From Chloroflexota bacterium (GTDB lineage: Bacteria > Chloroflexota > Anaerolineae > Promineifilales > Promineifilaceae): a DNA stretch of 33,144 bases. Shown piece after piece: positions 9,083-33,144 of this stretch. The notes under the pieces were generated by a model that was not told the DNA's origin, ran no database searches, and saw only the letters and a program-made list of their open reading frames with translations. The translations under genes and the position numbers were made by a program. The DNA is taken from positions 1-33,144 of the forward strand of contig JAGNBF010000089.1 of the NCBI GenBank assembly GCA_018004935.1, written 5' to 3'. Within the stretch, counting starts at the first letter, position 1; each line of letters starts with the position of its first letter.

Positions 9083-9124
9083 CTGAGCCAGACTGAAAAT
9101 TCAGCCTCATCGAATTACTAGTTG

Positions 9125-15042: not shown

Positions 15043-15070
15043 AATCATTGTATCTATACAGGTGGTGTAC

Positions 15071-15126: not shown

Positions 15127-15245
15127 GAACGTATTATCGTTACAAATCATTATAAACTGTTCGCGGTCAGTTAATGCGCTTTTACGCTGTGGCCGGTCTT
15201 CTGACCGAGTCACCAATATGTGACCGTGATGGATATAAAAAACGG

Positions 15246-15367: not shown

Positions 15368-15393
15368 AAAAAACAAAGAACTCGGAGCGTATC

Positions 15394-16587: not shown

Positions 16588-16660
16588 TTATTAACGACTT
16601 GCTTTGTTTCAATGTATCTTATTAAGTTTGTTCTACAAAGACTTTCAGGTGGACAGTAAT

Positions 16661-17482
16661 ATGCCTATTTTGCATATGGAGACGGATGTAGTGGGAGAGG
16701 TGGCGCAGGGGGTGGCGTTGCTGGCCGGGTTGGTGAATGAGGAAGGGAGCACGATGCGCCGGGCGGTGTGGGGGGTGGTAAATAGCTGGCAGGGAGGCGC
16801 GGCCGCAGACTTTGAATGGGAAGTAAATCACCTGCTTACTACCCTGTCCCGGCTGGAAGAAGAAGCCCTGCTTCTGGGCCAACGCCTGCGCCGCGAAATT
16901 GAAGAATGGGAAGATGTCGATCGCCAGTTAAGTGGTAGCTCTAATATGACTTTGCCGGGTTGGTCGCCCTCTCCTTTCCCGTTACGGCCTGGACCAGAGT
17001 TCCTACCCGATAATCCCCAAATGCCTTATCCTTTCCCACATCCTGAGGAGCCTTTCCCCATCCCCTTGCCGGATATTATCGGCAAACCAGATGAGGTCGG
17101 TAGAGTTGTCCCTCTGACAGGAACGGCAACCCCACCTATTATTCCCCCCGATCACCCTGCCACCTCTGACCCAATGGATAAACCTGGCATTGCATCCGCC
17201 AAACCTAATAGTGAAAAACCCAATCTCGCAACAGAGTCAGGAACAGTGACACCCCCCATTATTCCCCCTGATCATCCATCTGCAAACCCGGCCGACAAAC
17301 CACGTGTTTCCCCTGTTAAGCCGGTTGTGGAGAATCCAGAACCCAAAATAGGAACAATGCGGCCGCACCCCCCCATTGATTCCCCTGTCGCGGCCGCAGA
17401 CCCTGATGACAAACCATTACCGCATCAGCGAAAAACCCCTGGTTCTTCTGGTCCCTATCGCCCAGAAGACCCTACCAGTTAA
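16661..17482 (+). CDS. WXG-type secreted protein 3 with proline-rich repeat tail
   Basis: 273 residues from ATG 16661, after AGGTGG. The first 90 residues are the shared module (MPILHMETD, W43-Q-G45, E82-W-E84), ungapped against its paralogues. The remainder is Pro-rich and probably disordered, with about three imperfect repeats of TPPIIPPDHP followed by PxDKP, the first two exactly 120 bp apart in DNA. No enzyme domain is visible. It could be a secreted wall-spanning spacer, a scaffold, or a carrier that lost its toxin domain. Three octamers are present, one inside the third repeat. Confidence 0.75.
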   Translation: MPILHMETDVVGEVAQGVALLAGLVNEEGSTMRRAVWGVVNSWQGGAAADFEWEVNHLLTTLSRLEEEALLLGQRLRREIEEWEDVDRQLSGSSNMTLPGWSPSPFPLRPGPEFLPDNPQMPYPFPHPEEPFPIPLPDIIGKPDEVGRVVPLTGTATPPIIPPDHPATSDPMDKPGIASAKPNSEKPNLATESGTVTPPIIPPDHPSANPADKPRVSPVKPVVENPEPKIGTMRPHPPIDSPVAAADPDDKPLPHQRKTPGSSGPYRPEDPTS

Positions 17483-17540
17483 ACCCCTCGTGCCACAACA
17501 GACACAGTAAGGTCAATCCTTACCCCATCAGGAGGAAATA

Positions 17541-18710
17541 ATGCCAGTTTTACACATGGAAACCGATAGTGTGAGAAGTACCGGGCAGGCATTAGGGAGC
17601 GCGGCCGCACTCCTGGCTGATCAAATGTTTGATCTACAGGTTAGCATTAACTCGCTGGCCAATGGTTGGCAAGGTCCCGCCAGTGAGATGTTCATCGCAG
17701 AAATCACCCCATGGTTACGCCAACTTACCCAACTGACCGATGAAGTGAGCACCCTGCGCGACCGTGTGTTTCGGGAAGCCGATGAATGGGAACGGGTAGA
17801 TAGTATGATGGGTGGTGCGGCCGCGACCTTGGGTGCTTTATTTGCACAGCAAGTTCACCAGGCCGCCATGCAAACAGCCATAGGTGTCATGGCACGTGAC
17901 TTAGCTGAAATCGCACATACGACTGCCATATTCCACGATATGTCTCCCATATCGCCTGATAGCTGGCGCAGTGATTGGCAATGGCATTTTGATCCAATTG
18001 ATATGATTGACTGTATACCACAAGGAGCACGACCTGACGGGGCACCATCAACTGAATTAAGTAATGCAATGGCACAACTATCAGATCTGGTTTCGCATGG
18101 CATAGACGATATTGACCCTGTAACGGAACAGAAATTACTGGAGACAATCGCAAACCAGCGTGGTCTCACTTATGAGCAAGTTGTAGGCGACTACCGCAAA
18201 TTCCTAGGCTTAATCAAGGACAACCCTCCTGCGCCTACAGACCGGGCAGAATATTGGGGAACCATACAGCAATTACGCTTTGGCACAGTCGTGGGAGATA
18301 GTTTAGGCATTGATGCTGTATTTGGGTCACTTTTAAGTCCAACCGGTGGTCTTGTTGGCCCTTCAGAAGGACGAGTCATTCATGATGTTCTCTACAGACC
18401 AGATTCAGCTCTTGCCTATCATGGTATCTACCACGACGCCGCAGGCTTTTTTGCCCGAGAACCTTATAACCTGACGCCCAGCTATGAATATGTATTGACC
18501 ATAGAAGAAGATAGACGATTTGAAGGGCCATTTGCTCCTATCCTTGACATGGATAAGTTCAAAGCATTGGATGGGCAGGAAACAGGAATTGCCTTTTGGC
18601 ATGAGTTGCTTAAGATAAATGGCAAAAACCCCGCTGGTTCTTCTTCCGATCTTCCTAAATCTAGAGGAGCTGGAGGAGGTGGGGGTGGCGGCGGAGGTGG
18701 GGCGTGGTAA
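17541..18710 (+). CDS. WXG-type secreted protein 4 with unknown C-terminal domain containing YHDAAG motif
   Basis: 389 residues behind AGGAGG (about 17531-17536). Residues 1-92 are the shared module (MPVLHMETD, W43-Q-G45, E82-W-E84). A small-residue helical stretch (about 95-130) could touch membranes. The C-terminal domain (about 250-370) has RVIHDVLYRPDS and YHGIYHDAAGFF, placing H294, H298 and D299 close together, followed by a Gly-rich end (GGGGGGGGGG-AW). I do not recognise the family; the His/Asp cluster suggests a hydrolase-type effector but this is not shown. No obvious immunity gene follows: the next gene is an FHA membrane protein after a 338-bp gap. Confidence 0.75.
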   Translation: MPVLHMETDSVRSTGQALGSAAALLADQMFDLQVSINSLANGWQGPASEMFIAEITPWLRQLTQLTDEVSTLRDRVFREADEWERVDSMMGGAAATLGALFAQQVHQAAMQTAIGVMARDLAEIAHTTAIFHDMSPISPDSWRSDWQWHFDPIDMIDCIPQGARPDGAPSTELSNAMAQLSDLVSHGIDDIDPVTEQKLLETIANQRGLTYEQVVGDYRKFLGLIKDNPPAPTDRAEYWGTIQQLRFGTVVGDSLGIDAVFGSLLSPTGGLVGPSEGRVIHDVLYRPDSALAYHGIYHDAAGFFAREPYNLTPSYEYVLTIEEDRRFEGPFAPILDMDKFKALDGQETGIAFWHELLKINGKNPAGSSSDLPKSRGAGGGGGGGGGGAW

Positions 18711-19048: not shown

Positions 19049-20401
19049 ATGTCGAATGGGCGGAGCTTGCCCCAAAACCGGATACCCCTTATGCCACATT
19101 TTCTGATACGCCCCTTATTACCAGATGGTTATCGCCCACGCTGGTTGGTGCTGTTCCTAGTTTGCCTGAGTGGTGGTCTTCTTTTTCTCTGGTTAATGAC
19201 CCCGATGGGTAGGGCGCAGGCGCAAACCGCCGCCCTTGAAATTGAGAGCGACCCACCAATAGTTGTTTTGGGCACAAACCATACGCTCACTGTTACCATT
19301 TATTACACAATTCCGGCAGATGTACCCGTAACGACACCGTACACTCTTTATTACTTTGTGCCGGATGAACAAAATGGTTTGATGTTGAGCCAAACAGACC
19401 CCGGTGATCTTTCCACTGGCAATGGTTTGCATCCATTGACGAATCAGCCAGTTCGTTTTTGGGATATTATTCCGGGCATTCAACCTACCAGATTATTTAC
19501 GGTTCATCTGAATGTCTTGGAATTCGCTACCACGGGAGTGTTTACTCATATAACCGAGTTGGTCAACGCGGCCGCGCCCAATACTGTTATCGTCTCCGCG
19601 ACAGCCACAACGGTATTAACCACTGCTGTTCCTATCCCTAATGGTCTCCCCACCCTGGCAACGCCAACCGTCTCTTTGACGCCAACAATCCCTATTACCC
19701 TGGTTACTCCTGTTCCTCCGCCATCCACGATCCCCCCTTCCCCTATCCTGACACCCTCTCCCCCTATACCACCATCTACCTGGACACCCCAACCAACGGT
19801 GACACCTACCCTGGCTCCAGAAATAGTAGCTTCGCCAACGATAACCATACCTCAAGTCATCGCCACATTACCATCACCCCCGAGTCCATACCCGGCAGAC
19901 TTATTCAATAAGAGTGGGTTGTTTCTGATCTTGTTACTATTTATGGGATTATTGGTTGTGGTAGGTTTGGGCGGGATTCTCTTTTTGTGGTCAAGGAATC
20001 GGCGCAAACCTACCCCCCGGCCAATCATTCCGAAATCATCATTGCCGACCATTGCTTTGCCCGCGGCCGCGTCCCCTTCTGCCCTACCTGAAGCCTACCT
20101 GACCGATGTTACCGGCAAACCGCTGGCTATCACCACTCCCACCTTTACCATAGGCCGGGCCACTGACAACCAACTTGTGATAGATGCCCGCTTCCCCGAG
20201 TGGGAAACCGTCTCCCAATACCATGCCACCATCAGTCGCTCCCCCAGAGGTTATATCATCGAAGACCGGGGTTCACGGAATGGCCTGCGTGTGCAAGGCC
20301 GTCCGACCCCCAAAAATTTGCTCCAAAATGGGTATACTATCCATTTAGGTGACGTATCATTTACTTTTCATCAACCCGCGGAATCAGGAGGGCGTGCATG
20401 A
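19049..20401 (+). CDS. Membrane protein with beta-rich outer domain, Thr/Pro stalk and cytoplasmic FHA domain
   Basis: 450 residues from ATG 19049; ATG 19091 is an alternative and neither has a clear ribosome site. A signal peptide (about 31-59, ending AQA) leads to a beta domain (about 60-190), a long Thr/Pro-rich stalk (about 195-285), one membrane helix (about 290-315) and a cytoplasmic FHA domain (about 355-448) with IGRA, SQYHAT and SRNG motifs intact. It mirrors the first gene of the window in topology and would read phosphothreonine inside while contacting something outside. Its stop overlaps the next start (ATGA), so it is coupled to the zinc-ribbon/pseudokinase/PP2C protein, its likely partner. 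Confidence 0.85.
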   Translation: MSNGRSLPQNRIPLMPHFLIRPLLPDGYRPRWLVLFLVCLSGGLLFLWLMTPMGRAQAQTAALEIESDPPIVVLGTNHTLTVTIYYTIPADVPVTTPYTLYYFVPDEQNGLMLSQTDPGDLSTGNGLHPLTNQPVRFWDIIPGIQPTRLFTVHLNVLEFATTGVFTHITELVNAAAPNTVIVSATATTVLTTAVPIPNGLPTLATPTVSLTPTIPITLVTPVPPPSTIPPSPILTPSPPIPPSTWTPQPTVTPTLAPEIVASPTITIPQVIATLPSPPSPYPADLFNKSGLFLILLLFMGLLVVVGLGGILFLWSRNRRKPTPRPIIPKSSLPTIALPAAASPSALPEAYLTDVTGKPLAITTPTFTIGRATDNQLVIDARFPEWETVSQYHATISRSPRGYIIEDRGSRNGLRVQGRPTPKNLLQNGYTIHLGDVSFTFHQPAESGGRA

Positions 20402-22041
20402 TCACCTGCCCTAATTGCCAAAGCCAAAACCAACCCGGCAAACGTTTTTGCACCAGTTGTGGTCTGGCCTTGCCCAACGCACAACTGCCCGAAAATACCC
20501 GGCAACTGCCGGATAATAGTGCCATACCGCCGGATAGCGGCCGCAATACCAAACCCTTGACCAGCGCTCCATCATTTACCCCCCTGCCTGATGGTGCCAT
20601 CATCGCCGAACGTTTCCTGGTGCGACAACAATTAGAATCTACCCCTTACATCTTTAGTTATGTTGTAGAAGATACCACCAATCCCGAACGACCCGACTAT
20701 TACATTCTACGAGATGCTCAAGAATATGGTCGCTTTGGCATTGAGATGGATATAGCTAATTTGCCTTTAAAAGGACCAGGGTTGCGGCCGCCCTTTCACC
20801 TCTTTCAACAAGCTATTGGTGGCATCACCCGTACCTTTCTGGTTTACCCACAACCCAGTACCCCCTTGCGCAATCTGCCCCTACCCTTAGAACTACCCAA
20901 AGTGGTTAATTGGGGTGCCACTCTAGCCAAGGCTTTAGCCGCACTACACCAACACCAAATCGTTTTTGGACAGATGACACGGCAAGATATTCAGGTAGAT
21001 GGAGATAATATTTTTCTGGCCGATTTTTCTCATTGCCTCAAACCAGGCACTCCCTCCTTATACCAGGAAGATGTCCGTTATTTGGCGCTTATTCTTCATA
21101 AATTGCTTGGCGGCGAAAACTCAGATACACCTGTCATTAACTTGCCAGAACCACTCCAACAGTTATTAACCCAACACATTAACCGCAGTCTGGTTCTGAC
21201 AGCCCCCGAATTTGCCCAGGCCCTGGTTCAAATTGCCGGTAACTTGCGCCGACCATCGGCTGTTGACTTACGAGTAGGACGACGTACCGACGTGGGCATG
21301 ATACGTCAACTCAATGAAGATAGCCTATTGGTGATGGACATCGTTTGGAATAACCGGTCTGTGAGTAACCCCATAGGTTTATTTGTGGTGGCAGATGGCA
21401 TGGGAGGGCATGAAGGGGGGGAAGTTGCCAGCGGTATGGTGACACAAACGATAGCTCAACAGGCAATGGTGGCTTTATTAGAGCCAAATACGGGTCTTAT
21501 CAAATCTACTGTGGATGTATCTCAATGGCTGAGTGAGGCAGTACAAACCGCCAATCTGAAGGTATTTCAACAGAGCGAGCAGGCACAAAATGATATGGGG
21601 TCAACGGTTGTAGCTGTTTTGATGCAGGGTAACCAAGCCACGATTGCCCATGTAGGCGATAGCCGTGTTTATCATATCCATGCCGAAGGAATTCGGCGCA
21701 TTACCATAGACCATTCTCTGGTGGAGCGTTTAGTTGCAACCAATCAGATCAGCCGAGAAGAAGCCCGACACCACCCCCAGGCCAATGTCATTTACCGCAC
21801 AATGGGTGACAAAAAGAAGGTAGATGTGGATATTAATGTGGTTCCTATTCCTTTGGGTGATTATTTGCTTCTCTGCTCGGATGGTCTGAGTGGAATGGTA
21901 ACGGATGAGCGTATTCACCAAATCGTTATCACTGCTACCTCCCCTCAATCTGCCTGTGATCTGCTTATCCAGGCGGCTAATGCGGCGGGCGGAGAAGATA
22001 ATATTACCGCAATACTTATAAGGCCAGAGGCTATTCAATAA
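20398..22041 (+). CDS. Zinc ribbon, kinase-like (pseudokinase) and PP2C phosphatase fusion
   Basis: 547 residues. A four-Cys zinc ribbon (C4, C7, C18, C21) comes first. Residues about 65-270 thread onto a protein kinase: GAIIAERFLVRQQL resembles the start of the N-lobe, ALAALHQHQIVFGQM the helix before the catalytic loop, and LADFSH (D209) the DFG strand. The catalytic HRD Asp and the DFG Gly are missing, so it is probably a pseudokinase. The C-terminal PP2C domain (about 290-545) is complete: RQLNEDS, D333-G-M-G-G, GSTVVAV, VGDSRVY, SDGL and EDN. The pseudokinase may position substrates or regulate the phosphatase. It overlaps the FHA gene by four bases and is followed five bases on by a second PP2C. 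Confidence 0.85.
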   Translation: MITCPNCQSQNQPGKRFCTSCGLALPNAQLPENTRQLPDNSAIPPDSGRNTKPLTSAPSFTPLPDGAIIAERFLVRQQLESTPYIFSYVVEDTTNPERPDYYILRDAQEYGRFGIEMDIANLPLKGPGLRPPFHLFQQAIGGITRTFLVYPQPSTPLRNLPLPLELPKVVNWGATLAKALAALHQHQIVFGQMTRQDIQVDGDNIFLADFSHCLKPGTPSLYQEDVRYLALILHKLLGGENSDTPVINLPEPLQQLLTQHINRSLVLTAPEFAQALVQIAGNLRRPSAVDLRVGRRTDVGMIRQLNEDSLLVMDIVWNNRSVSNPIGLFVVADGMGGHEGGEVASGMVTQTIAQQAMVALLEPNTGLIKSTVDVSQWLSEAVQTANLKVFQQSEQAQNDMGSTVVAVLMQGNQATIAHVGDSRVYHIHAEGIRRITIDHSLVERLVATNQISREEARHHPQANVIYRTMGDKKKVDVDINVVPIPLGDYLLLCSDGLSGMVTDERIHQIVITATSPQSACDLLIQAANAAGGEDNITAILIRPEAIQ

Positions 22042-22046: not shown

Positions 22047-22844
22047 ATGTATATTGATGTTTGGGGTGAGACAGACCCAGGACAAGCTCGTCCTGATAAT
22101 CAGGACAACCTCTTTTTTGTGCATGGGCAAGGGTCTGATGTGTCGCCCCGGCAGATACAACAGAGTGGTCTATTGTTGGTCATTGCTGACGGTTTTGGCC
22201 AGGGGACATTAGGGCAGGAAGCCAGCCGTTATTTGCTCCATGATGTGGTACAAGGATATTACCGTGCTGGGAGTCATAACGCGCCAGAAAATCTACGCAT
22301 AGCCATTTGTGATGCCAATGAAAACGCGGCCGCACATTTTCCCCAGCAAAACGCGGCCGCAACGCTTATCGCGGCTGTCATTATGCAAAACCAACTTCAT
22401 CTGGCCCACATTGGTGAATGTCGGGCCTATCTTTTACGTCAGGGTACGATGCGCCAACTTACCACTGACCATGTGGAGCGAGGGCAGGTGACTCGTTACC
22501 TGATTGCTGATCGCCAAGCTCAACCAGACCTGCTATTACCCATTGAATTATATCCTGGGGATCGGTTGCTTCTTTGTTCAGATGGTCTGTACGATCCCTT
22601 TCCAGACGCGGCCGCGATCCATCAATTGGCCCGTTCTGGTTCACCCCAACGGTCCGTACGCCGCCTTATTGAGAAAGCCAACCAACAGGGTGGCCCAGAC
22701 AATATCAGCGTCATCATTGCCGATGTTCAAAATGCACATCCCCTGGCGGGCTGGCAAAAAGTAATACTCCTGGGACTCACTGTGTTAGCCTTGCTGGCTT
22801 GCCTGGGATTTATCGCCGAAATCATCCGTGTGTTATCCAACTAA
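22047..22844 (+). CDS. PP2C-family phosphatase, C-terminally membrane-anchored, partly degenerate
   Basis: 265 residues. It shows a PP2C frame: RPDNQDN, D48-G-F-G-Q (normally DGxGG), CSDGL and GGPDNIS, with the main metal-binding Asp residues present. However GDSRAYL reads GECRAYL, and the usual M-G-[ST]-T strand is replaced by N-A-A-A-T, where AAA comes from a GCGGCCGC octamer at 22353. Activity may be reduced. A single membrane helix (about 235-258) ends the protein, with the catalytic part inside. It starts five bases after the previous stop, with no clear ribosome site, so coupling is likely. Three octamers fall in this short gene. Confidence 0.8.
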   Translation: MYIDVWGETDPGQARPDNQDNLFFVHGQGSDVSPRQIQQSGLLLVIADGFGQGTLGQEASRYLLHDVVQGYYRAGSHNAPENLRIAICDANENAAAHFPQQNAAATLIAAVIMQNQLHLAHIGECRAYLLRQGTMRQLTTDHVERGQVTRYLIADRQAQPDLLLPIELYPGDRLLLCSDGLYDPFPDAAAIHQLARSGSPQRSVRRLIEKANQQGGPDNISVIIADVQNAHPLAGWQKVILLGLTVLALLACLGFIAEIIRVLSN

Positions 22845-22973: not shown

Positions 22974-22990
22974 CCTAATTCCTTTTGCTT

Positions 22991-23779
22991 ATGACAACCA
23001 GACCACCTACTTCCTCATTGTCCGAAATTCCGATAAACGTTTGGCAACAGATGGCGACCAAATTGGTTATGCTAGGGCAGGCAACAATGCAAGCCTATGC
23101 GGCCGGAGAATTGGATCATCCGTCATTGCTTCCGTTGTGTATGGAAATTGTCAGCCTGGAGCCACAGTTGTTCCCGAGCAAAACTGAAATGGATGACCCT
23201 GCCCCGTCCCCTGTGGTCGCCCCGGTTCCCTCTGAATCGGTGAGTCTGCCCGAACCAGCGCCGGTTCTAAAACCACGGTTGCCTGAACCGGAGATAGCCC
23301 CTGCCCTGAATAAGGGAACGCCCACCCTCGTGACCCATTACACGCCGCCGCCATCTGCGCCGGTGTTGACCTGCCAACAATGTGGGACGCCGTTAGTGCC
23401 AGGGCGTAAATTTTGCACCCGTTGTGGGGCATCCGTTATGCCAACTGGGGCGATTACGCCTGCCAACCAGAGTCAACCCAGTACAGCTACGCCTACCAAG
23501 GTTAAGTGTACTTCCTGCAATGAGGTGGTACCGCCTGATGCCCTTTTTTGTACCAATTGTGGTTACCAACTGCGGCCGCAAAATCCCGGTGTGCCTGTTT
23601 CGCGGCCGCTGGCACCGACGGTAGTAATGTCTCCCCCCATCCCGACCGCCGGAATTATTCCTTCCTCAGTGGGAACCCCCTCTAGCTCCATTACCCAATA
23701 TTGCAACAATTGTGGGTTGGGTTTACCGGCAACTGTAACGGTTTGCCCGGACTGTGGTAGCCGTGATATTGGCAATTAA
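22991..23779 (+). CDS. Triple zinc-ribbon protein
   Basis: 262 residues from ATG 22991 (TTG 22985 also possible). A short helical N-terminus (about 10-60) and a Pro-rich linker precede three CxxC...CxxC zinc ribbons: CQQCG...FCTRCG, CTSCN...FCTNCG and CNNCG...VCPDCG. There is no enzyme domain. It is an adaptor-like protein, probably mediating contacts among the signalling proteins, several of which carry the same ribbon type. The next gene starts three bases after its stop, with no clear ribosome site. Confidence 0.75.
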   Translation: MTTRPPTSSLSEIPINVWQQMATKLVMLGQATMQAYAAGELDHPSLLPLCMEIVSLEPQLFPSKTEMDDPAPSPVVAPVPSESVSLPEPAPVLKPRLPEPEIAPALNKGTPTLVTHYTPPPSAPVLTCQQCGTPLVPGRKFCTRCGASVMPTGAITPANQSQPSTATPTKVKCTSCNEVVPPDALFCTNCGYQLRPQNPGVPVSRPLAPTVVMSPPIPTAGIIPSSVGTPSSSITQYCNNCGLGLPATVTVCPDCGSRDIGN

Positions 23780-23782: not shown

Positions 23783-24757
23783 ATGGTAATGACATCTATT
23801 TCTGCTCCCCAATGTGCTTATTGTGGCACGACCAACCGACCAGAAGCCCGGTTTTGTTATCAATGCGGCCGCGCTCTTGCCCCCCTCGTCAATGGTCTCA
23901 ATCCGGCCCTGACGCCTACCATGCCTCTGCCCCTGTTCCCCCCCAAAGGGATCACATTGCGGTATGGTTTTCAGTCTGACAGAGGCCGGGAGCGGCAAAA
24001 CCATGAAGACAGTCTGATTACTGTGCAATTAACCGGTATGGTAGAGGGATTTATTCCGGTGACGTTGGGCCTGTTTGCCGTGGCAGATGGTATTGGGGGG
24101 AGCGAAGCCGGAGAAATTGCCAGCCGCATGGCGCTCTATTACCTGTCTTGGGAAATTGTGGAACGGACCTTTAAACGAGTGACGGTCAGTGCTAATCATT
24201 CCCCGTACCATTTGGACCGACGATTAAATACTGGTTGGTTAGAGCGAACACTAAAGGCGAGCATTGTCAGGGTGAACCAGGCACTTTACCAGATGCGCCA
24301 ACAACGCGGCAACAATATGGGAACAACCCTCACGGCCGTTTTGAGCCTGAACGAGTACGCGGCCGCGGCCAATGTGGGTGATAGTCGTACCTACCTCTGG
24401 CGGCAGGGGCAGTTGCAACAACTGACTACCGACCATTCTCTGGTCGCCGCCCTCATGGCCGCTGGGGAAATTACGGATGAAGAATCCCTTTACAACCATA
24501 CCCAAAAAGGTATCATTTACCGCAGTTTGGGTGAAAGAGAGAACGTCGAAGTGGACACACATCATTTGCAGTTACAAACCGGTGATGCCCTGGTTTTGTG
24601 CTGTGATGGGTTATGGGAAATGATTCGCCCCACAGGGATTGCCACCATTCTCGGTTACGAAACCGACCCCCAACGGGCCTGTGATGAGATGGTTTACCGG
24701 GCTAATCTCGCTGGGGGTAAAGATAATATTTCCGTTGTTGTCGTTGCTGTTTCGTAA
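23783..24757 (+). CDS. Zinc-ribbon PP2C Ser/Thr phosphatase, soluble
   Basis: 324 residues from ATG 23783; ATG 23789 is also possible. One zinc ribbon (C11, C14, C25, C28) precedes a full PP2C domain (about 55-324) with RQNHEDS, D102-G-I-G-G, MGTTLTAV, VGDSRTYL, CDGL and GKDNIS. No membrane helix is seen. It is the third PP2C of this block and the fourth in the window. The ribbon probably brings it to shared partners. Octamers fall in the ribbon (encoding C-G-R) and just before the VGDSR strand (AAA). Confidence 0.88.
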   Translation: MVMTSISAPQCAYCGTTNRPEARFCYQCGRALAPLVNGLNPALTPTMPLPLFPPKGITLRYGFQSDRGRERQNHEDSLITVQLTGMVEGFIPVTLGLFAVADGIGGSEAGEIASRMALYYLSWEIVERTFKRVTVSANHSPYHLDRRLNTGWLERTLKASIVRVNQALYQMRQQRGNNMGTTLTAVLSLNEYAAAANVGDSRTYLWRQGQLQQLTTDHSLVAALMAAGEITDEESLYNHTQKGIIYRSLGERENVEVDTHHLQLQTGDALVLCCDGLWEMIRPTGIATILGYETDPQRACDEMVYRANLAGGKDNISVVVVAVS

Positions 24758-24902: not shown

Positions 24903-25013
24903 GGTTCTTTGGGAATTCCAGGGGGTTGACGCCAGATGTAGGGGCTGGCCTTGTGCCAGCCCCGTGTGGGGCAACCACAAGGGCTGTCCGTACCCCACAA
25001 AACCCAAAGAATC
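24903..25013 (+). mobile_element. MITE-like repeat, family R3 copy 4
   Basis: About 111 bp with left end GGTTCTTTGGGAATTC and right end AAAACCCAAAGAATC. It holds the inner GGGGCTGGCCTTGTGCCAGCCCC palindrome and a GGGGCAACCACAAGGG block. It ends about 21 bp before the vWA gene start. Confidence 0.7.
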
Positions 25014-25034
25014 AATGCTTTTAGGTTATACACC

Positions 25035-26291
25035 TTGAATGAACTTATATTAACCGTTACCTTAAACAAATCAGCCTATCCTGTACTGGATACGGAACAG
25101 CTTGGTTATGTGCTGGTAGAAGCCAGACCGACAATCCCGGCTGGTCAGGAACAATCGCGTCCGCCACTCAATTTGGCCCTGGTGTTAGATCGTAGTGGTT
25201 CTATGGCCGGGGAAAAATTAGATAACCTGAAACGGGCGGCGCGGCTGGTAGTACAGCGGTTATCCCCTCAGGATATGCTCACGATTATCCTGTTTGATGA
25301 TCGGGCAGACATATGGGTTCCCTGCCAATTTGTGAGGGACCCTCAAATGTTTTTGGCGCGGATTGAGGCGATTCAGGAACGAGGTGGCACACACTTATCC
25401 ACTGGTCTGGCGGCCGGTTTACAACAGTTACAAACTGTAGCCGGAGCGGGGCGGGTGAATCGCCTGATTTTACTGACGGATGGAGAAACGTGGGAAGATG
25501 CCGATAAGTGCCGCGAATTGGCGCGGCAGGCGGGACAATCTGGGGTGGTCATTACCGCTTTGGGGTTAGGTGAAGAATGGAACCAGCAACTTTTGACTGA
25601 TATAGCCGTTTTCTCTGGGGGAAACTGGCATTATATTGATGATCCGGCCCAGCTCGCGGCCGCGTTTCAGAATGTTGTATCTACCATGCAAGCCACCACC
25701 ATCACCAACGTGAATCTGATTTTACGGTTACTGGAAGGGGTGCGGCCGCGAACTGTCTGGCGCGTTACCCCTCTCATTGACCGCCTCTCTCATCAGGCCC
25801 TCTCCGCCCGAGATGTCCAGGTTTATTTGGGTGATTTACAAATTGGCGGACAATCTGCTCTGGTAGAATTGACCTGGCCCCCACGCCAGGCAGGACATTA
25901 CCGTCTGGCGCAGGCCGAACTCCGGTATGATCAGCCTTTAGAAGGTCTGATGGGACAAAAAGTCCAACAGAATATTCTGGTTTCGTTTGCTCAAACTGGG
26001 GATACTCCCCCGGATGGCCGAGTGATGAATGTGGTGGAAAAAGTAACCGCCTTTAAACTTCAAACCCAGGCACTGGCTGATGTTTCCTTAGGACACATGG
26101 CCCAGGCAACACAGAAATTGCGTGCGGCCGCGACCCGCCTCCTCAGTTTAGGTGAGGAAGAAAAAGCTCAGGAAGCGCTTAACCTGGCGGAACAACTTAA
26201 TGCCGGTCAAGCCCTCTCTGCCCGACAAACTAAACGGTTTTATAGTGCGACTCGTAAGCTGGATACGGGTGAGTTACTACCGGGAACTTAA
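25035..26291 (+). CDS. vWA domain protein with intact MIDAS
   Basis: 418 residues from TTG 25035, chosen because upstream codons lie inside an R3 repeat and homologous proteins usually begin a few residues before this strand. The vWA domain (about 45-225) has a complete metal site: D52-R-S-G-S, the Thr of GGTHLST (about 119) and D149 in LLTDGE. A beta-sandwich segment (about 235-340) and a helical C-terminus (about 345-418) follow. No signal peptide or membrane span is seen, so it is probably cytoplasmic, with metal-dependent binding to a partner in the signalling block. Three octamers are present. Confidence 0.85.
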   Translation: MNELILTVTLNKSAYPVLDTEQLGYVLVEARPTIPAGQEQSRPPLNLALVLDRSGSMAGEKLDNLKRAARLVVQRLSPQDMLTIILFDDRADIWVPCQFVRDPQMFLARIEAIQERGGTHLSTGLAAGLQQLQTVAGAGRVNRLILLTDGETWEDADKCRELARQAGQSGVVITALGLGEEWNQQLLTDIAVFSGGNWHYIDDPAQLAAAFQNVVSTMQATTITNVNLILRLLEGVRPRTVWRVTPLIDRLSHQALSARDVQVYLGDLQIGGQSALVELTWPPRQAGHYRLAQAELRYDQPLEGLMGQKVQQNILVSFAQTGDTPPDGRVMNVVEKVTAFKLQTQALADVSLGHMAQATQKLRAAATRLLSLGEEEKAQEALNLAEQLNAGQALSARQTKRFYSATRKLDTGELLPGT

Positions 26292-26366
26292 ACATTGAGT
26301 AGCATGGGTGTCATCCTATAGCTGTACAAGAAATTGACTCGTCAGGTACTAAAAGAGGTAAACGTA

Positions 26367-27320
26367 ATGAACCCCATTTGTCAACAATGTGGTACGCCCA
26401 ATATTTCTGGCGCAGCTTTTTGTGATAACTGCGGCTCCCAATTTTTATCAGGAGATAGTTCTGGTAATTCCACCCTGGCCCCTACACAAGTACCACCTTC
26501 TCCACCTGTGGTTGTGGCTTCTGCGGGGCCATCCCCACTCGCCAGAGCCACTACCTGTTCTATCTGTGGTGTTCCCTATCAGGCAGGAGAAGCTTATTGT
26601 GGCAACTGCGGCGCACCCCTTCCTCAAGCCTCTTCTTCTCCACCAGTAGTCAATTACCCAGCACCTCCTGTCATGACTCCCGTCGCGGCCGCGGGCAATA
26701 TTTGCCCCCAATGCGGTACCCCTAATGAAGCAAGTTCCGTTTTTTGTGATAATTGTGGCGCTAGCCAATCCGCACCAACACCCGGTGTTTACGCATCCGG
26801 CGGCGTTTACCCACCGCCCCCCCCACCGCCGCCGGTTACTTATCCTCCCGCGCCCCCGATCCCTTACCCTCAACCGCAGAGCCAGGGTAATTACGGAAAT
26901 CCGCCGATGCCCCCTGTGCATGTGCTTCCGCAGAACCAAAGCAACTATCCACCTCCGAACCCAAATCCCTATGAACAAAGACCACAATCTGCGTCCACCC
27001 CTCGATTGGTGCTCCAGGCCAACAATGTGGTACTACCTTTCCCGGCAGGCAAAACGGTGCTGATTATTGGGCGAGAAGATGCCGTAAGTGAACACTTTCC
27101 GGAACTTGACCTGGGACCTTATGGGGCCGAGCAACTGGGTGTATCGCGTAGTCATGCTCGTTTTACGGTTCAGGGTAATCAGGTTTTTATAGAAGATATG
27201 CAGGCTGTTAATTACACCTTTGTTAATCGGCAAAAACTAGCACCTCATACCCGCCACATCCTACAAAATGGTGACGAAATTCGTTTAAGTAAGATGGTAC
27301 TACTCTTTTACCTTCAATAA
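26367..27320 (+). CDS. Triple zinc-ribbon FHA domain protein
   Basis: 317 residues from ATG 26367, preceded by AGAGG at 26354-26358. Three zinc ribbons (CQQCG...FCDNCG, CSICG...YCGNCG, CPQCG...FCDNCG) alternate with Pro-rich linkers (about 1-135). A long Pro/Tyr/Asn-rich disordered stretch (about 140-210) leads to a C-terminal FHA domain (about 215-317) with IIGRED, SRSHAR and a VNYTFVN turn where NG is usual. No membrane segment is present. It is a soluble phosphothreonine reader probably linking kinases to other zinc-ribbon partners. Confidence 0.85.
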   Translation: MNPICQQCGTPNISGAAFCDNCGSQFLSGDSSGNSTLAPTQVPPSPPVVVASAGPSPLARATTCSICGVPYQAGEAYCGNCGAPLPQASSSPPVVNYPAPPVMTPVAAAGNICPQCGTPNEASSVFCDNCGASQSAPTPGVYASGGVYPPPPPPPPVTYPPAPPIPYPQPQSQGNYGNPPMPPVHVLPQNQSNYPPPNPNPYEQRPQSASTPRLVLQANNVVLPFPAGKTVLIIGREDAVSEHFPELDLGPYGAEQLGVSRSHARFTVQGNQVFIEDMQAVNYTFVNRQKLAPHTRHILQNGDEIRLSKMVLLFYLQ

Positions 27321-27857: not shown

Positions 27858-28868
27858 ATGCCACTGACAACGGGTTATGTTTTAAATGATCGTTATCGCA
27901 TTGTGAAACAAATCCAACGTGGTGGTTTTGGTGCTGTTTACCGAGCCTGGGATGTAGTGTCCCGGCAACCTTGTGCCGTTAAAGAAAATCTGGAAACCAA
28001 TCTCAAATCTCAGGAGCAGTTTCAGCGGGAAGCTACTTTGATGAGCAATTTGCATCATCCTAGCCTGCCCCAAGTGACTGATCATTTTGTCATTCCTGAG
28101 CAAGGGCAATATTTGGTGATGGATTTTGTGGAGGGCCAAAATCTAGAGCAGATTTTGCAACAACAAGGGCGACCGTTTCAAGAAAGTGAGATTATGGAAT
28201 GGGTGGATCAGGTATGTGATGCTTTACATTATTTGCATACCCGCCAACCCCCCATCATTCATCGGGATGTGAAACCCGCTAATATCATTATTAACAGCCA
28301 GCGCCGGGCAATACTGGTGGATTTTGGTATCTCCAAAGTATATGACAAACGGTTGACTGCTACTGGTGCGGTAGCGGTTACACCCGGTTATAGCCCCCCA
28401 GAGCAATATGGGCGTGGTCAGACGGAAGCCCGGACGGATATCTATGCTCTAGGGGCTACTGTCTATGTTTTGCTGACGGGCAACCGGCCTCCCATTAGTC
28501 TGGAGCGTATGGCGAATATGAAAAGTATGCCTGCTCCGCGTCAGGTTAACCCGCAAATTTCGGGAATGGTGGATCAGGCAGTGATGAAGGCGATGAATGT
28601 GATGCTGGTAGATCGGTATAGTACCATCGCTGAGTTTCGACAGGTGTTGAGTTTTCCGCGCTCAGGGGTGGCGGTAAAGTTGGATGCGGTGCGAACACCT
28701 TTGCCCGTGGCACCGGTTACACCTGTAGTAGCGAATGGGGAGAAGGTTCGCGGCCGCAGTCGGTGGCCGCTCATTTTATTGTTCGGGGGCATTTTTCTGG
28801 CCGCGTTGTGTACCATTGTCGTGGTTATACTCCTGGTATTATTGGAAGCGGGCATTTTAGGGACATAA
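27858..28868 (+). CDS. Membrane-anchored Ser/Thr protein kinase 1 of three tandem paralogues
   Basis: 336 residues. The kinase domain (about 10-270) has GGFGAVYRA, K42 in CAVKEN, H135-R-D137-V-K-P-A-N, DFG at D155 and SPPEQYG. A linker leads to one membrane helix (about 305-330) and almost no outside part, so it is the ectodomain-free member of the set. AAGGA nine to ten bases upstream supports the start. The next kinase follows after five bases. It probably phosphorylates Thr sites read by the FHA proteins. One octamer lies just before the membrane helix. Confidence 0.93.
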   Translation: MPLTTGYVLNDRYRIVKQIQRGGFGAVYRAWDVVSRQPCAVKENLETNLKSQEQFQREATLMSNLHHPSLPQVTDHFVIPEQGQYLVMDFVEGQNLEQILQQQGRPFQESEIMEWVDQVCDALHYLHTRQPPIIHRDVKPANIIINSQRRAILVDFGISKVYDKRLTATGAVAVTPGYSPPEQYGRGQTEARTDIYALGATVYVLLTGNRPPISLERMANMKSMPAPRQVNPQISGMVDQAVMKAMNVMLVDRYSTIAEFRQVLSFPRSGVAVKLDAVRTPLPVAPVTPVVANGEKVRGRSRWPLILLFGGIFLAALCTIVVVILLVLLEAGILGT

Positions 28869-28873
28869 ATTTC

Positions 28874-31330
28874 ATGCCGCTCATTCAAGGACAGTTATTA
28901 AATAACCGTTATCGTATTGCTCGCCTTATTGGTCAGGGTGGTTTTGGGGCGGTTTATCGGGCCTGGGACACGGCCATCAACCAGCCTGTAGCCATCAAAG
29001 AAAACCTGGATACCGGCCAAGAAGCCCAAAAACAGTTTTATCGGGAAGCCTCATTTTTAGCCCGTTTACGTCACCCCAATCTGCCCCGGGTGACAGACCA
29101 TTTCACCATGCCTGGTCAGGGTCAATATTTGGTGATGGATTTTGTCGAAGGGCAAAACCTGAAGGAATTGTTGCTCACCCGAGGACAACCATTTAGCGAA
29201 GTAGAGGCTTTGCCCTGGATTGAACAGATTTTCGACGCTTTAACTTATTTGCATGGCCTGACTCCGCCCATCATTCATCGGGATATTAAACCCGCCAATA
29301 TCATCATCACCCCAGACGGGAAACCGATGTTGGTGGATTTTGGGATTTCCAAAATTTACAATCCCGACTTTTCCACCACTGTGGGGGCTAAAGCTGTTAC
29401 GCCGGGTTATAGTCCGCCAGAGCAATATGGCGGAGGTATGACGGATGCTCGGGCAGATATTTATGCTATGGGAGCCATGCTGTACACGATGCTTACCGGC
29501 AAAGAACCGCCGGAGAGTGTGCAACGAATGGCCGGAGCGGTGAAGATGACGGCTCCGCGCCAGGTGAATGCCCAGATTACCCCAACTCTGGAAGCGGCTA
29601 TTCTGAAAGCGATGGAAGTAAATACTACTCAGCGCTTTCAAAATGTGGCTGAATTTCGGCGGGCGTTGCATCATTCGCTGGCTGTTCCCTTGCCGAAAAA
29701 GAAACGAGGTGGCCTGATCTGGCTGTTGGTGGGTGGGGGGATGATTATGGTGTTAGGGGTGGCTATTTTGTTGGCTATGCTGTTGACAACGATAAACGAT
29801 GACCCTACAAAAATTCCTACCGAACTGGCTACGGTAACGGAGGAGATCGCGGCCGCGCCCACAGAAACGATGGCCGTTACGGAGACGCCTTCCCTGACTC
29901 CTTCATTAACTGCAACGGTTACCGCCTTTCCCCCTACAAATGAGGTTGTGGCTCCAACCGAAGAGCCTACGGCTACGCCCACCTTTACCCGTACTTCTAC
30001 GCCCACTCGCACCGCCACAGCTACACGCACGAGTGCATCGGCTTCTGTGGGTGTGTCCCCAACTTTTACCCTTTCGTCTACTTCAACAACAGCGCCTGCG
30101 GCCGCGGGCTGTTCTATGGGGGGTGGTTCGGCTAGTTCCGGTGGGGGGTTGCCTCTTACTTTTGAGTCGTTTGGTAATTGGGTGCGGGGCAATGAGAACA
30201 ATGGGGCCATTGTGTCTACAGGGGAGCGGGTGCATGGCGGCGCGGCCGCGGCACGCATTTGTTACAACTTCCCGGCGGAGAGCAATGATTACGTTGTTTT
30301 TCTCCAATTTAATGCCATAAGCGGCTCTCCCAATGCCTTACAACTTTGGGTTTATGGCGATGGTACTGGTCATTATTTCAATATTTGGATTCAGGATAGT
30401 GATAGCCAGACATGGCAAGTGCCCATGGGTCGTCTCACGCATACGGGTTGGCAACAGATGACTGGTTTCATTCAAACCGGTCAGGTCTGGCCCTGGCAGG
30501 CAATCAGTGGCACGGATAATGGCATTGTGGATTACCCTATCCAATTTCGTGCCTTTGTTATAGATGATCGCCCTGACACGTTTACCGGCGAGAGTATCAT
30601 TTATGTGGATGATTTAACGGCAACGACGCTAGATCCAGGCAATTTACCGCCAACGGCCACACCTGGGTCAGGAAATGCGGCCGCGACAGCCACGCCTTCT
30701 GCTGTAGGGACAACCATCTCGGTTGCAACCTTGCCCCCCGGCAGTGTCGGCCAAATTTTATACACCGCCAGCAATACCCTGATGACCACCAATCCCGATT
30801 GGAGTATGGGGAGAGAAGTGGGTACAGTTTCCAGTAATACCTGTGGCACAACGGCTACGACTGTCAGTGGTCAAAGTTACAACCTGTTCCGAGGGTATCG
30901 CTGTGGTATACCCCAAACCATCAGCACTTGTGCTTCACCTAACGGGGCGTATGAAATTGTGATTGATGCCCAAGACCCCAATAACGCCAGCCTGTTAGTG
31001 CGTCCCACAGGGAATGCCAGTGCCGTGCAATTTGTTTATCAAGGGGTATTAGATCTACAGGACGGATTACAATGGTCCCCTGGCAGTACCACCTTTCTTT
31101 TTAGCATTGGTACCGATACCTATGCCGGTTATCCCTCTGGGGGTTATGACCATATTTTGTCCCAGGGATATGAACCATTTTTCTCTCCTAATGGGTCCAG
31201 CCTGTTGTACCGAAAGCCGGTGGGACCTGGCGTTTATGATATTTTTGTCAGTAATGCGGATGGTTCCAATGAGCGTAATGTGACGAATGCGTCTAGTGTC
31301 AACAAAACGTGCGCCGTATGGCGGAATTAA
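28874..31330 (+). CDS. Receptor-like Ser/Thr kinase 2 with carbohydrate-binding-like and beta-propeller-like ectodomain
   Basis: 818 residues from ATG 28874, five bases after the previous stop; codons further up overlap the preceding gene. The kinase domain (about 10-270) has GGFGAVYRA, AIKEN, H135-RD-I-K-P-A-N and VDFGIS. A membrane helix (about 280-305) and a Thr/Pro stalk (about 310-410) follow. The outside part begins with a beta-sandwich (about 425-590) resembling carbohydrate-binding CBM11/CIA30-type folds, then a region (about 625-818) with SPNGAYEIVI, LQWSPGSTTFLFS and FFSPNGSSLLYRKP strands typical of TolB/PD40 propeller repeats. It likely senses a wall sugar or extracellular ligand. 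Four octamers lie between the stalk and the second outer domain. Confidence 0.9.
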   Translation: MPLIQGQLLNNRYRIARLIGQGGFGAVYRAWDTAINQPVAIKENLDTGQEAQKQFYREASFLARLRHPNLPRVTDHFTMPGQGQYLVMDFVEGQNLKELLLTRGQPFSEVEALPWIEQIFDALTYLHGLTPPIIHRDIKPANIIITPDGKPMLVDFGISKIYNPDFSTTVGAKAVTPGYSPPEQYGGGMTDARADIYAMGAMLYTMLTGKEPPESVQRMAGAVKMTAPRQVNAQITPTLEAAILKAMEVNTTQRFQNVAEFRRALHHSLAVPLPKKKRGGLIWLLVGGGMIMVLGVAILLAMLLTTINDDPTKIPTELATVTEEIAAAPTETMAVTETPSLTPSLTATVTAFPPTNEVVAPTEEPTATPTFTRTSTPTRTATATRTSASASVGVSPTFTLSSTSTTAPAAAGCSMGGGSASSGGGLPLTFESFGNWVRGNENNGAIVSTGERVHGGAAAARICYNFPAESNDYVVFLQFNAISGSPNALQLWVYGDGTGHYFNIWIQDSDSQTWQVPMGRLTHTGWQQMTGFIQTGQVWPWQAISGTDNGIVDYPIQFRAFVIDDRPDTFTGESIIYVDDLTATTLDPGNLPPTATPGSGNAAATATPSAVGTTISVATLPPGSVGQILYTASNTLMTTNPDWSMGREVGTVSSNTCGTTATTVSGQSYNLFRGYRCGIPQTISTCASPNGAYEIVIDAQDPNNASLLVRPTGNASAVQFVYQGVLDLQDGLQWSPGSTTFLFSIGTDTYAGYPSGGYDHILSQGYEPFFSPNGSSLLYRKPVGPGVYDIFVSNADGSNERNVTNASSVNKTCAVWRN

Positions 31331-31354
31331 GTTGAATGTTTTCCAGGCAAACCC

Positions 31355-33144
31355 ATGTCATTAGATAAAGGGCAGATTTTACAAGGTCGTTACCGTATAG
31401 TGGAGTTAATTGGCCAGGGCGGCTTTGGGGCGGTGTACCGGGGGTGGGATATGACGCTGGGTCGCCCTTGTGCTGTTAAGGAAAACCTGGACACTAGCGA
31501 AGAAGCGCAACGGCAATTTCAGCGCGAAGCGACGCTTCTGGCTAAATTAAGCCATCCCAACCTGCCCCGTATGGCGGATCATTTTTTTGTGCCCGGCCAG
31601 GGACAATATCTGGTCATGGATTTTGTGCAGGGGCAAAGCCTGAAACAGCATCTGGTAGAACGCGGCCGCGCCCTTAGTGAGGCGGAGATATTACCCTGGA
31701 TTACTCAGGTATGTGAAGCCCTTATTTACCTGCATAGTCAAACCCCCCCCATCATTCATCGCGATATTAAACCGGATAATATCATTGTGACCCCAGAAGG
31801 GCGGGCCATGTTAGTGGATTTTGGCATCTCCAAGGTATATGATGCCCAGTTTTCCACGACTATGGGAGCACGGGCGATTACTCCCGGCTTTAGTCCGCCA
31901 GAACAGTATGGTATAGGTAAAACGGCTCCTCATACAGATGTCTATGCCATTGGGGCAACGCTTTATATGTTATTGACCGGGCAACAGCCCCCGGAAAGTG
32001 TGGCGATTATTGCCGACGAGAGCGCTTTGCCACCCCCGCGCCAGATAAATCCTACTATCTCGATACGCACGGAGCGGGCCATTCTGTTGGCGATGGATGT
32101 CTCTACGACGCGCCGGTTGCCGAACGCGGCCGCGTTGCTGACAGCACTTCAAGCTAACTCGCAGGGTTTACCTGGAATCTTACCCATCAATCGTCGCCGG
32201 ATAGGCCTGGTGGTTATAGGGGTAATAGGCATTTTAATTCTGGTTGCGGCCGCGTTTCTACTCCGGTCTTTCTCCACTGCGGACACCACTCCTACCCCTG
32301 TGGTGCCTGTCGCGGCCGCTACAACCCCCATCACCACCCTCATCACCCCTGCGCTTAGCACCACCCCTAACCCCGCCTTATTAGATGAGGACCAAGATGG
32401 TTTGACCAATGCTCAGGAAGATCAACTTGGCACCGATCCGATGAACTCTGATACAGATGGTGATAACCTGGATGACGGAGCCGAACAGTTACAGCATCAG
32501 ACTGATCCCCTAAACAAGGACAGTGATGCTGATTTATTGACCGACGGAGATGAGATTGAGCAGTACCTGACTAACCCCACACTGGCTGATAGCGATGGTG
32601 ATAACCGTACCGATGCCATAGAATTGGCGGAAGGAACAGACCCCTTGGTAGCACCAACCACAACCCCCTCGCCATCCCCTTCCGCCATTGCCACACCGAC
32701 AGATCATCCCCCTGCCACTCCTACCTCAACCGTCACCCCGGCCTGTCCGGCTATTTCTGGGCCTTTTGCTAATGCCTGGGGCCAGGTGAAAAATGACATT
32801 GGCTGTGCCGCCAATAATGCGGTTGCCGGAGTTATCGTGGAAGAAAACTTTGTGGGTGGCAAAATGTTCTGGCGTGAACCAATTGATTATGCCCAGGCGT
32901 TGGTTTTATTTGACAATGGCACATGGCGTATTTACAGCCATGCCCCTTACAATGAAGGAGACCCCGAATACCCCTGTACAGATGCCAATACTCCGGCTCA
33001 ATCTCCGCCCACTCCTCGGCGGGGATTTGGCACAATGTGGTGCGATATTTCCGCCATTCGTAATGGGTTAGGAAATGCAACGGATGTGGAAAGAGCGTTT
33101 AATGGGACAATGCAGAGTTTTGAGAATGGTTTCATGGTAGCTAC
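31355..33144 (+). CDS. Receptor-like Ser/Thr kinase 3 with calcium-type repeats in the ectodomain (3' end outside the window)
   Basis: At least 596 residues, open to the window edge with no stop. The kinase domain (about 10-270) has GGFGAVYRG, CAVKEN, HRDIKPDN and VDFGIS and is closely similar to the two preceding kinases. A membrane helix (about 283-305) and a Thr-rich stretch follow. Residues about 343-415 hold several D-x-D-x-D-G-type units (DEDQDGLTN, DSDTDGDNLDDG, DSDADLLTDGDE, DSDGDN) like thrombospondin type 3 calcium repeats. A Pro/Thr stalk and a further outer domain (from about 455, with several Cys) are cut off. It starts 24 bp after the previous stop without a clear ribosome site. 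Four octamers are present. Confidence 0.92.
   Translation, partial: MSLDKGQILQGRYRIVELIGQGGFGAVYRGWDMTLGRPCAVKENLDTSEEAQRQFQREATLLAKLSHPNLPRMADHFFVPGQGQYLVMDFVQGQSLKQHLVERGRALSEAEILPWITQVCEALIYLHSQTPPIIHRDIKPDNIIVTPEGRAMLVDFGISKVYDAQFSTTMGARAITPGFSPPEQYGIGKTAPHTDVYAIGATLYMLLTGQQPPESVAIIADESALPPPRQINPTISIRTERAILLAMDVSTTRRLPNAAALLTALQANSQGLPGILPINRRRIGLVVIGVIGILILVAAAFLLRSFSTADTTPTPVVPVAAATTPITTLITPALSTTPNPALLDEDQDGLTNAQEDQLGTDPMNSDTDGDNLDDGAEQLQHQTDPLNKDSDADLLTDGDEIEQYLTNPTLADSDGDNRTDAIELAEGTDPLVAPTTTPSPSPSAIATPTDHPPATPTSTVTPACPAISGPFANAWGQVKNDIGCAANNAVAGVIVEENFVGGKMFWREPIDYAQALVLFDNGTWRIYSHAPYNEGDPEYPCTDANTPAQSPPTPRRGFGTMWCDISAIRNGLGNATDVERAFNGTMQSFENGFMVA

What the first reader, a model, noticed from the sequence alone, without database searches (positions are those of the whole stretch)
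20398..22041. Zinc ribbon, pseudokinase and PP2C in one chain
The kinase-like segment has lost the HRD Asp and the DFG Gly while the PP2C half is intact. A dead kinase fused to a live phosphatase is an unusual regulatory architecture.
Basis: partly seen in the sequence, partly recalled or inferred. Interest (0 to 1): 0.6.

Follow-up and report, generated by a model that had tools for sequence, protein, structure and literature searches.

The report
Dead kinase fused to a phosphatase
One bacterial protein joins a zinc-binding knob, a kinase-shaped domain that has lost its catalytic parts, and an apparently working phosphatase; relatives in other bacteria keep the same layout, so the dead kinase probably steers the phosphatase rather than being debris.

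Summary
ORF 20398-22041 (547 aa) carries a zinc ribbon (C4-C7-C18-C21), a kinase-like segment (61-290) and a complete Stp1-type PP2C (291-545). Pfam sees no kinase there. Family profile-profile comparison (97.8%, E 1e-12, controls under 1%), a profile search of PDB sequences, and an AlphaFold model (PknB Z 15.2) all say kinase fold.

HRD is FGQ, the catalytic Lys and Asn are Thr and Asp, DFG is DFS, and the activation segment shrinks to 14 residues.

It is not a one-off. At least 44 of 400 Chloroflexota genomes have a match spanning the whole layout. Plasmids of Deinococcus and Nostocales carry divergent versions. Most relatives put a zinc ribbon inside the pseudokinase N-lobe. The pseudokinase part is under purifying selection (dN/dS 0.04-0.21).

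Genes nearby encode FHA, vWA and active kinases, a TerY-P-like triad; here they sit beside a type VII secretion-like locus. Best reading: the pseudokinase, with the ribbon, docks the phosphatase onto its FHA/kinase partners. That step is inferred. Kinase-PP2C and zinc-ribbon-PP2C fusions, and eukaryotic pseudokinase-phosphatases, are in print; I found no description of this architecture in the open papers searched.

The parts
20398..22041 (+). gene: zinc ribbon + pseudokinase + PP2C, 547 aa
   Evidence: ORF; start and overlaps
20407..20460 (+). zinc ribbon, C4-x2-C7...C18-x2-C21
   Evidence: Pfam Zn_Ribbon_1 E 9.6e-6; positions
20482..20574 (+). low-confidence linker, residues 29-59
   Evidence: pLDDT under 50 in most of it
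20578..21267 (+). kinase-like segment (pseudokinase), residues 61-290
   Evidence: hhalign 97.8% to active kinases; PDB profile search; VIA Z 15.2 to PknB
20710..20712 (+). R105 at the position of the VAIK lysine (inferred from predicted strand beta-3, 101-106)
   Evidence: strand in full-length model; position; the multiple alignment of this region is unreliable
20965..20988 (+). catalytic-loop equivalent FGQMTRQD (HRDxKxxN in active kinases)
21022..21030 (+). DFG equivalent D209-F210-S211
21070..21072 (+). D225, the alpha-F aspartate kept in 33 of 39 sequences
21268..22032 (+). PP2C (Stp1/IreP type), residues 291-545
   Evidence: NCBIfam NF033484 251.7 bits over cut-off 230; tPphA Z 33.1, 231 residues, rmsd 1.8
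21313..21321 (+). PP2C motif N306-E307-D308
   Evidence: invariant in 7-sequence alignment
21394..21408 (+). PP2C motif D333-G-M-G-G
21658..21666 (+). PP2C motif D421-S-R423
21880..21885 (+). PP2C motif D495-G496
21997..22002 (+). PP2C motif D534-N535
19049..20401 (+). upstream gene, predicted membrane protein (by eye) with C-terminal FHA, overlapping the start
   Evidence: FHA E 4e-12; GR, SxxH and NG present (sequence)
22047..22844 (+). second PP2C; GDSR is GECR
   Evidence: PP2C_2 E 1.1e-13; sequence
22985..23779 (+). protein with three zinc ribbons
23783..24757 (+). zinc ribbon + PP2C without pseudokinase
24951..26291 (+). vWA protein
   Evidence: VWA E 1.5e-20
26334..27320 (+). zinc ribbons + FHA
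27858..33142 (+). three kinase genes with HRD and DFG intact (27858-28868, 28871-31330, 31355 to the window end)

Best explanation
The protein is a PP2C phosphatase whose built-in pseudokinase, with a zinc ribbon, works as a docking and targeting module. The pseudokinase keeps the kinase fold but has lost catalysis and the activation segment. It would bind the FHA protein encoded immediately upstream, and/or the active kinases of the locus, and so hold the PP2C on their phosphothreonines to reset the signal. Shown here: domain layout, kinase fold, lost catalytic residues, conserved PP2C residues, conservation and purifying selection of the pseudokinase, and neighbouring FHA, vWA and kinase genes. 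Inferred: lack of kinase activity, phosphatase activity, partner binding, and any role beside the type VII secretion-like genes.
For: Kinase fold with the catalytic machinery gone. PP2C intact. Pseudokinase dN/dS 0.041, 0.090 and 0.209 in three sets against 0.028, 0.050 and 0.083 for the PP2C part, so it is retained for a function. An FHA gene lies directly upstream in the window, in two family members (L157, L158), in two Deinococcus plasmids and two Nostocales plasmids. In five fetched Chloroflexota loci (L152-L156) and an Oscillochloris contig (L037) the gene directly downstream is a kinase, followed by vWA and FHA. Precedents read: phosphorylated MviN pseudokinase binds FhaA (PMC11898655, passages); EssC FHA domains contact the EssB pseudokinase in T7SSb (PMC11217815, passages).
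Against: No binding or activity data. The vWA/FHA/kinase neighbourhood is not specific to the pseudokinase version: 5 of 10 Chloroflexota loci with another PP2C have vWA and FHA too. Two of 21 pseudokinase loci (L161, L163) showed no such neighbour. In EssB the FHA partners lack the pThr site, so that precedent is not phosphorylation-dependent. The zinc ribbon's place differs between relatives, and partner co-variation was not tested.
Confidence: 0.5

Rival explanations
1. Nucleotide-responsive switch: the pseudokinase still binds ATP or another nucleotide (R105 in beta-3, DFG Asp kept) and changes the PP2C's activity allosterically.
For: Predicted five-stranded N-lobe with alpha-C; DFG Asp kept in the window and in 19 of 39 sequences in all. 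DYD pseudokinases with beta-3 Arg are modelled to bind ATP (PMC12599244, section 12 read).
Against: Glycine-rich loop is gone by eye; DFG Asp lost in 20 of 39 sequences, and 31 of 39 carry a zinc ribbon where beta-3/alpha-C would be. N-lobe pLDDT only about 62-77.
Confidence: 0.2
2. EssB-like structural part of the neighbouring type VII secretion-like machine: the pseudokinase is a scaffold for the EssC-like ATPase.
For: EssC/EccC-like ATPase, YukD-FHA fusion and WXG100-like proteins lie upstream; EssB also has all motifs degraded and a shortened activation loop (PMC12599244, section 4).
Against: No FtsK, WXG or YukD match in any of 21 pseudokinase-PP2C loci outside the window; no YukC family match at E<=1; no obvious membrane anchor.
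Confidence: 0.1
3. The kinase-like segment still transfers phosphate or another group by a non-canonical route, making a two-way enzyme.
For: SelO and SidJ show that degraded kinases can have new chemistry (PMC12599244, section 4); two Deinococcus relatives keep an Asp at the HRD position.
Against: Catalytic Asp, Lys and Asn lost and activation segment nearly absent in the window; variable residues at these places across relatives.
Confidence: 0.07
4. Evolutionary relic: kinase and PP2C genes fused, the kinase then decayed and now serves only as a spacer.
For: Adjacent kinase and PP2C genes occur in Anaerolineae-type loci, a plausible source of a fusion.
Against: dN/dS 0.04-0.21 over the pseudokinase; homologous segment kept in seven family groups of the phylum.
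Confidence: 0.08

Closest known systems
Stp1/IreP-family PP2C phosphatases (NCBIfam NF033484; PstP, tPphA)
   Same: PP2C half scores over the curated cut-off (251.7 vs 230) and superposes on tPphA (Z 33.1)
   Different: Those solved are single-domain catalytic parts; here a zinc ribbon and a pseudokinase precede it
NCBIfam NF011149 / PRK14559 serine/threonine phosphatase (642 positions; cyanobacterial, Sll1033-like by recall)
   Same: Two stretches match; long N-terminal part before the PP2C
   Different: 143 bits against a cut-off of 374; whether its N-terminal part is a pseudokinase was not tested
TerY-P triad (vWA TerY + STY kinase + PP2C), as described in PMC4978471
   Same: vWA, kinase and PP2C in one locus, together with FtsK and WXG genes as in that description
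   Different: Several kinases and PP2Cs, FHA proteins, and a pseudokinase on one PP2C; no TerD-type family among the window ORFs scanned
T7SSc (TscD kinase, TscE vWA, TscF PPM; PMC11217815)
   Same: Kinase, vWA and PPM genes beside an EssC-like ATPase, YukD and WXG100
   Different: Chloroflexota; ATPase below the EssC model cut-off (592.9 vs 778.4); TscF not described with a pseudokinase in the section read
EssB/YukC and MviN pseudokinases
   Same: Degraded kinase fold; shortened activation loop (EssB); FHA-linked
   Different: Membrane proteins, not joined to a phosphatase domain (recalled)
TriTryp kinatases (PMC2175518)
   Same: Pseudokinase domains with HRD Asp lost, in one chain with a phosphatase domain called active there
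   Different: Eukaryotic, DSP-type phosphatase plus LRRs, two pseudokinase domains
PP2C-kinase fusions of Pseudomonas and Deinococcus (PMC1262709)
   Same: PP2C and kinase domains in one chain; D. radiodurans listed
   Different: Reported as kinases, PP2C at the N-terminus in the pseudomonads; catalytic loss not discussed in the passages read

Membership tests
Hanks-type kinase superfamily (as pseudokinase) | protein kinase fold | tested here: met
   C-lobe confident, N-lobe moderate
Hanks-type kinase superfamily (as pseudokinase) | loss of the HRD Asp | tested here: met
   Q192; Asp absent in 37 of 39 sequences
Hanks-type kinase superfamily (as pseudokinase) | no phosphotransfer activity | not testable with these tools
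   needs an assay
Active Hanks-type kinase | intact HRD, catalytic Lys/Asn, DFG and activation segment | tested here: not met
   FGQ, T, D, DFS, 14-residue segment
Stp1/IreP PP2C | score over the NCBIfam cut-off | tested here: met
   251.7 bits vs 230
Stp1/IreP PP2C | conserved acidic motif residues | tested here: met
   D308, D333, D421, D438, D495, D534 invariant in 7 sequences; their roles as metal ligands are recalled
Stp1/IreP PP2C | phosphatase activity | not testable with these tools
   needs an assay
NF011149 / PRK14559 phosphatase | score over the curated cut-off | tested here: not met
   143.1 bits vs 374
TerY-P triad | vWA, STY kinase and PP2C genes together | tested here: met
TerY-P triad | the vWA protein is TerY itself | not tested
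   only the general VWA families were matched
EssB/YukC | match to the YukC family | tested here: inconclusive
   no such row at E<=1, but distant members can be missed
TriTryp kinatase | DSP phosphatase plus LRR | tested here: not met
   PP2C instead, no LRR family
DLHK pseudokinase | HRD Asp and the loop Asn retained | tested here: not met
   Q192 and D197; family definition from PMC12599244, section 13
CP1 pseudokinase | linked COG3899 ATPase domain | tested here: not met
   no ATPase family on the chain; definition from PMC12599244, section 10

The most novel reading that the evidence does not exclude
An unnamed, old and widespread bacterial enzyme family in which a pseudokinase, usually itself holding a zinc ribbon inside its N-lobe, is the in-chain selector of a PP2C phosphatase: a phosphatase that finds its kinase or FHA partners by wearing a kinase's shape.
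Probability: 0.35. Interest if true: 0.65.

Novelty: new variant of a known kind. Interest (0 to 1): 0.47.

Why it matters
Most bacterial pseudokinases have no known function (PMC12599244). Here one is joined to an enzyme with a simple assay, next to genes for FHA proteins and active kinases, so its job can be tested by deleting one domain. It also shows that plain Pfam surveys of PP2C architectures (as in PMC12088040) can miss such pseudokinases, because Pfam does not see this one.

Tried and rejected
Pfam alone gives no kinase for residues 61-290, and the genome-wide Pkinase scan of the own genome did not list this gene among its 65 matches; I did not take that as absence, because profiles and structure say otherwise. 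PADLOC matches are generic kinase/PP2C similarity and were not used. A defence reading was not pursued further.

One fusion or several: the PP2C tree of 77 rows (28 with pseudokinase) needs 5 label changes; the Deinococcus and Nostocales rows form their own clade; one clade for all 28 is not rejected (p-AU 0.233). The test for the Chloroflexota rows alone did not finish and was not repeated. The control PP2Cs were every second locus of L039-L115 plus L040 and L044, own-genome PP2Cs, and the partner PP2Cs of five loci.

The neighbourhood comparison (vWA in 12 of 21 pseudokinase loci, 5 of 77 control loci, but 5 of 10 Chloroflexota controls) was rejected as evidence specific to the pseudokinase. 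The sets are not matched for phylum or locus length, the 21 loci were picked by me, and the controls were not all checked for a pseudokinase.

The beta-3 Lys column of the 39-sequence alignment is unreliable; R105 rests on the predicted strand only. 'No published description' rests over open-licence PMC papers; subscription papers, among them the original TerY-P paper and the Sll1033 paper, were not held.
Full report
What is there. ORF 20398-22041 on the + strand encodes 547 residues. A ribosome-binding-like AGGAGG precedes the ATG, the gene overlaps the stop of the FHA gene 19049-20401, and a second PP2C gene starts 5 bases after its own stop, so it reads as part of an operon. Pfam finds the zinc ribbon (residues 4-22, E 9.6e-6) and the PP2C (E 1.2e-15), and nothing for residues 61-290 at E<=1. 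NCBIfam puts the PP2C in the Stp1/IreP family above its cut-off (251.7 vs 230 bits). The best solved relatives by sequence are bacterial PP2C chains at E 3e-36 to 1e-35; by structure tPphA, Z 33.1 over 231 residues, rmsd 1.8.

Is 61-290 a kinase? Three lines agree. (1) A family alignment of 29 sequences against 12 active kinases of the same genome gives 97.8% and E 1.2e-12 by hhalign; PP2C, FHA, vWA and FtsK controls give at most 0.1%. With only three sequences (window, L011, L036) the value is 97.3%, and the highest control is 0.7%. (2) A 4-sequence profile searched against PDB sequences gives, in the 60 rows shown of 614 at E<=1, protein kinases or kinase-domain proteins, best E 1.2e-5, among them the pseudokinases ErbB3 and PAN3 (that these two are pseudokinases is recalled). 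(3) AlphaFold on 61-292 with four sequences folds the C-lobe well (blocks mostly 70-92) and not the N-lobe. Of the 1000 chains re-aligned, 998 reach Z 8 or more; the rows listed are kinases, best PknB Z 15.2, 125 residues, rmsd 2.0. The full-length model (7 sequences, mean pLDDT 77.4) adds a five-stranded N-lobe with a short alpha-C at moderate confidence. Caveat: AlphaFold knows kinases well, and four to seven sequences are few.

How dead is it? Aligned with the four kinases of the window: HRD is FGQ, HRDxKxxN's Lys is Thr and Asn is Asp, DFG is DFS. Between the DFG Gly position and the alpha-F Asp there are 14 residues against 37-42, and no APE motif. Over 39 sequences the HRD Asp is absent in 37 (the two exceptions are Deinococcus), the DFG Gly in 33, the DFG Asp in 20, while the structural alpha-F Asp is kept in 33. 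The lysine of VAIK seems to be R105, from the predicted strand only.

How widespread? The pseudokinase segment alone finds full relatives in 2 further genomes of 52 in its own family group (L010, L011; the fourth match, L012, is weak and lies in an ordinary kinase-like ORF). With the family profile A3, 322 of 400 Chloroflexota genomes match, mostly through PP2C alone. 44 of 400 have a listed row covering model positions 71 or lower to 529 or higher of 536 (my count from the printed table, which was cut, so a lower bound), in family groups f1, f22, f25, f35, f48, f61 and f64. Of the 43 besides the window I aligned 29 (L121-L150 without L128), all without HRD Asp, and scored three more (L159, L160, L163), all matching the pseudokinase profile. 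The own genome has a second copy (L162, 4961-6838). Named relatives: a Chloroflexi MAG, an Oscillochloris MAG and a MAG titled Poribacteria (L036-L038). Plasmids of Deinococcus radiodurans, D. wulumuqiensis, Trichormus variabilis and Tolypothrix carry an FHA gene followed by a PP2C with a degenerate kinase in front.

The zinc ribbon moves. 31 of 39 sequences have a CxxC...CxxC ribbon within the pseudokinase region, where beta-3/alpha-C should be. The window, L010, L011, L021, L129, the two Deinococcus and the Trichormus sequences do not. 30 of the 31 open frames checked have a ribbon in the first 120 residues, and 28 of 31 count in both tests; for short frames such as L121 that is one and the same ribbon.

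Is the pseudokinase kept for a reason? Yes. Counting by Nei-Gojobori, dN/dS (ratio of means) is 0.041, 0.090 and 0.209 in three groups of close relatives (6, 5 and 4 sequences), against 0.028, 0.050 and 0.083 for the PP2C part. Some dS values are near saturation (up to 3.14 in the second group, where one of 10 pairs was unusable).

Neighbours. In the window: FHA, this gene, PP2C, zinc-ribbon protein, zinc ribbon-PP2C, vWA, zinc ribbon-FHA, then three kinases with intact motifs. In L152-L156 and L037 the order is PP2C, pseudokinase-PP2C, kinase, vWA, FHA. Tolypothrix has vWA, FHA, pseudokinase-PP2C, kinase. Among 21 pseudokinase-PP2C loci, kinases are seen in 14, vWA in 12 and FHA in 11; among 77 loci of other PP2Cs, 53, 5 and 14; but among the 10 Chloroflexota loci of those 77, 7, 5 and 5. 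So the kinase-PP2C-vWA-FHA set is a Chloroflexota habit that also exists without the pseudokinase (L040, L044, L053, L056, L087). It corresponds to the TerY-P triad described in PMC4978471 (passages read), which there too may sit with WXG and FtsK genes, and to the TscD/E/F set of T7SSc (PMC11217815, section 8 and passages).

Mechanism. With catalysis and activation segment gone but the fold, a constrained sequence and FHA/kinase neighbours kept, a binding role is the economical reading: the pseudokinase brings the PP2C to the FHA protein or kinases of its own locus. Bacterial precedents are MviN-FhaA (PMC11898655, passages) and EssB with the FHA domains of EssC (PMC11217815, passages). The FHA protein upstream has the residues usually needed for phosphothreonine (GR, SxxH, NG; my reading with the motif recalled). 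I give this 0.5. A nucleotide-dependent switch, a secretion scaffold, odd chemistry and a relic are the rivals; the relic is disfavoured.

What is known. PP2C joined to kinase domains was reported in 2005, D. radiodurans included (PMC1262709, passages). Zinc-ribbon PP2Cs are noted for Chloroflexota and Cyanobacteriota among others, and PP2C-Pkinase proteins mainly for Pseudomonadota (PMC12088040, section 3.4 and passages). Trypanosomatid kinatases join pseudokinases to a DSP phosphatase (PMC2175518, passages). A 2025 review of bacterial pseudokinase families has no hit for PP2C, zinc or Chloroflexi and 'phosphatase' only in its references (PMC12599244; sections 4 part 1, 10, 12 and 13 read). 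I therefore call it a new variant of a known kind, not a new kind.

Noticed in passing
window 7534-18710: Type VII secretion-like locus in a Chloroflexota genome: a YukD-FHA fusion, an EssC/EccC-like ATPase (592.9 bits, below the EssC cut-off 778.4) and several WXG100/PPE-like proteins with long C-terminal parts.
   Followed up: partly
window 15292-16587: Protein with a WXG-like start (by eye) and a C-terminal CHAP domain (E 2.7e-13), which could be a secreted cell-wall hydrolase.
   Followed up: no
window 22047-22844: The adjacent PP2C has GECR in place of GDSR and a very long branch (2.02) in the PP2C tree; perhaps a weakened or specialised phosphatase.
   Followed up: no
L040, L044, L053, L056, L087: Kinase-PP2C-vWA-FHA gene sets with a PP2C that lacks a pseudokinase in the two read (L040, L044), kinase and PP2C genes overlapping or nearly so.
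   Followed up: partly
L158:7263-8653: The family relative of this gene is split over two reading frames, a frameshift or an assembly error.
   Followed up: no
L038:2405-4669: Directly after its pseudokinase-PP2C gene the Poribacteria-titled contig has a kinase and a vWA domain in one chain.
   Followed up: no
L162:187-16283: The second own-genome copy lies beside a vWA gene and six kinase ORFs.
   Followed up: no
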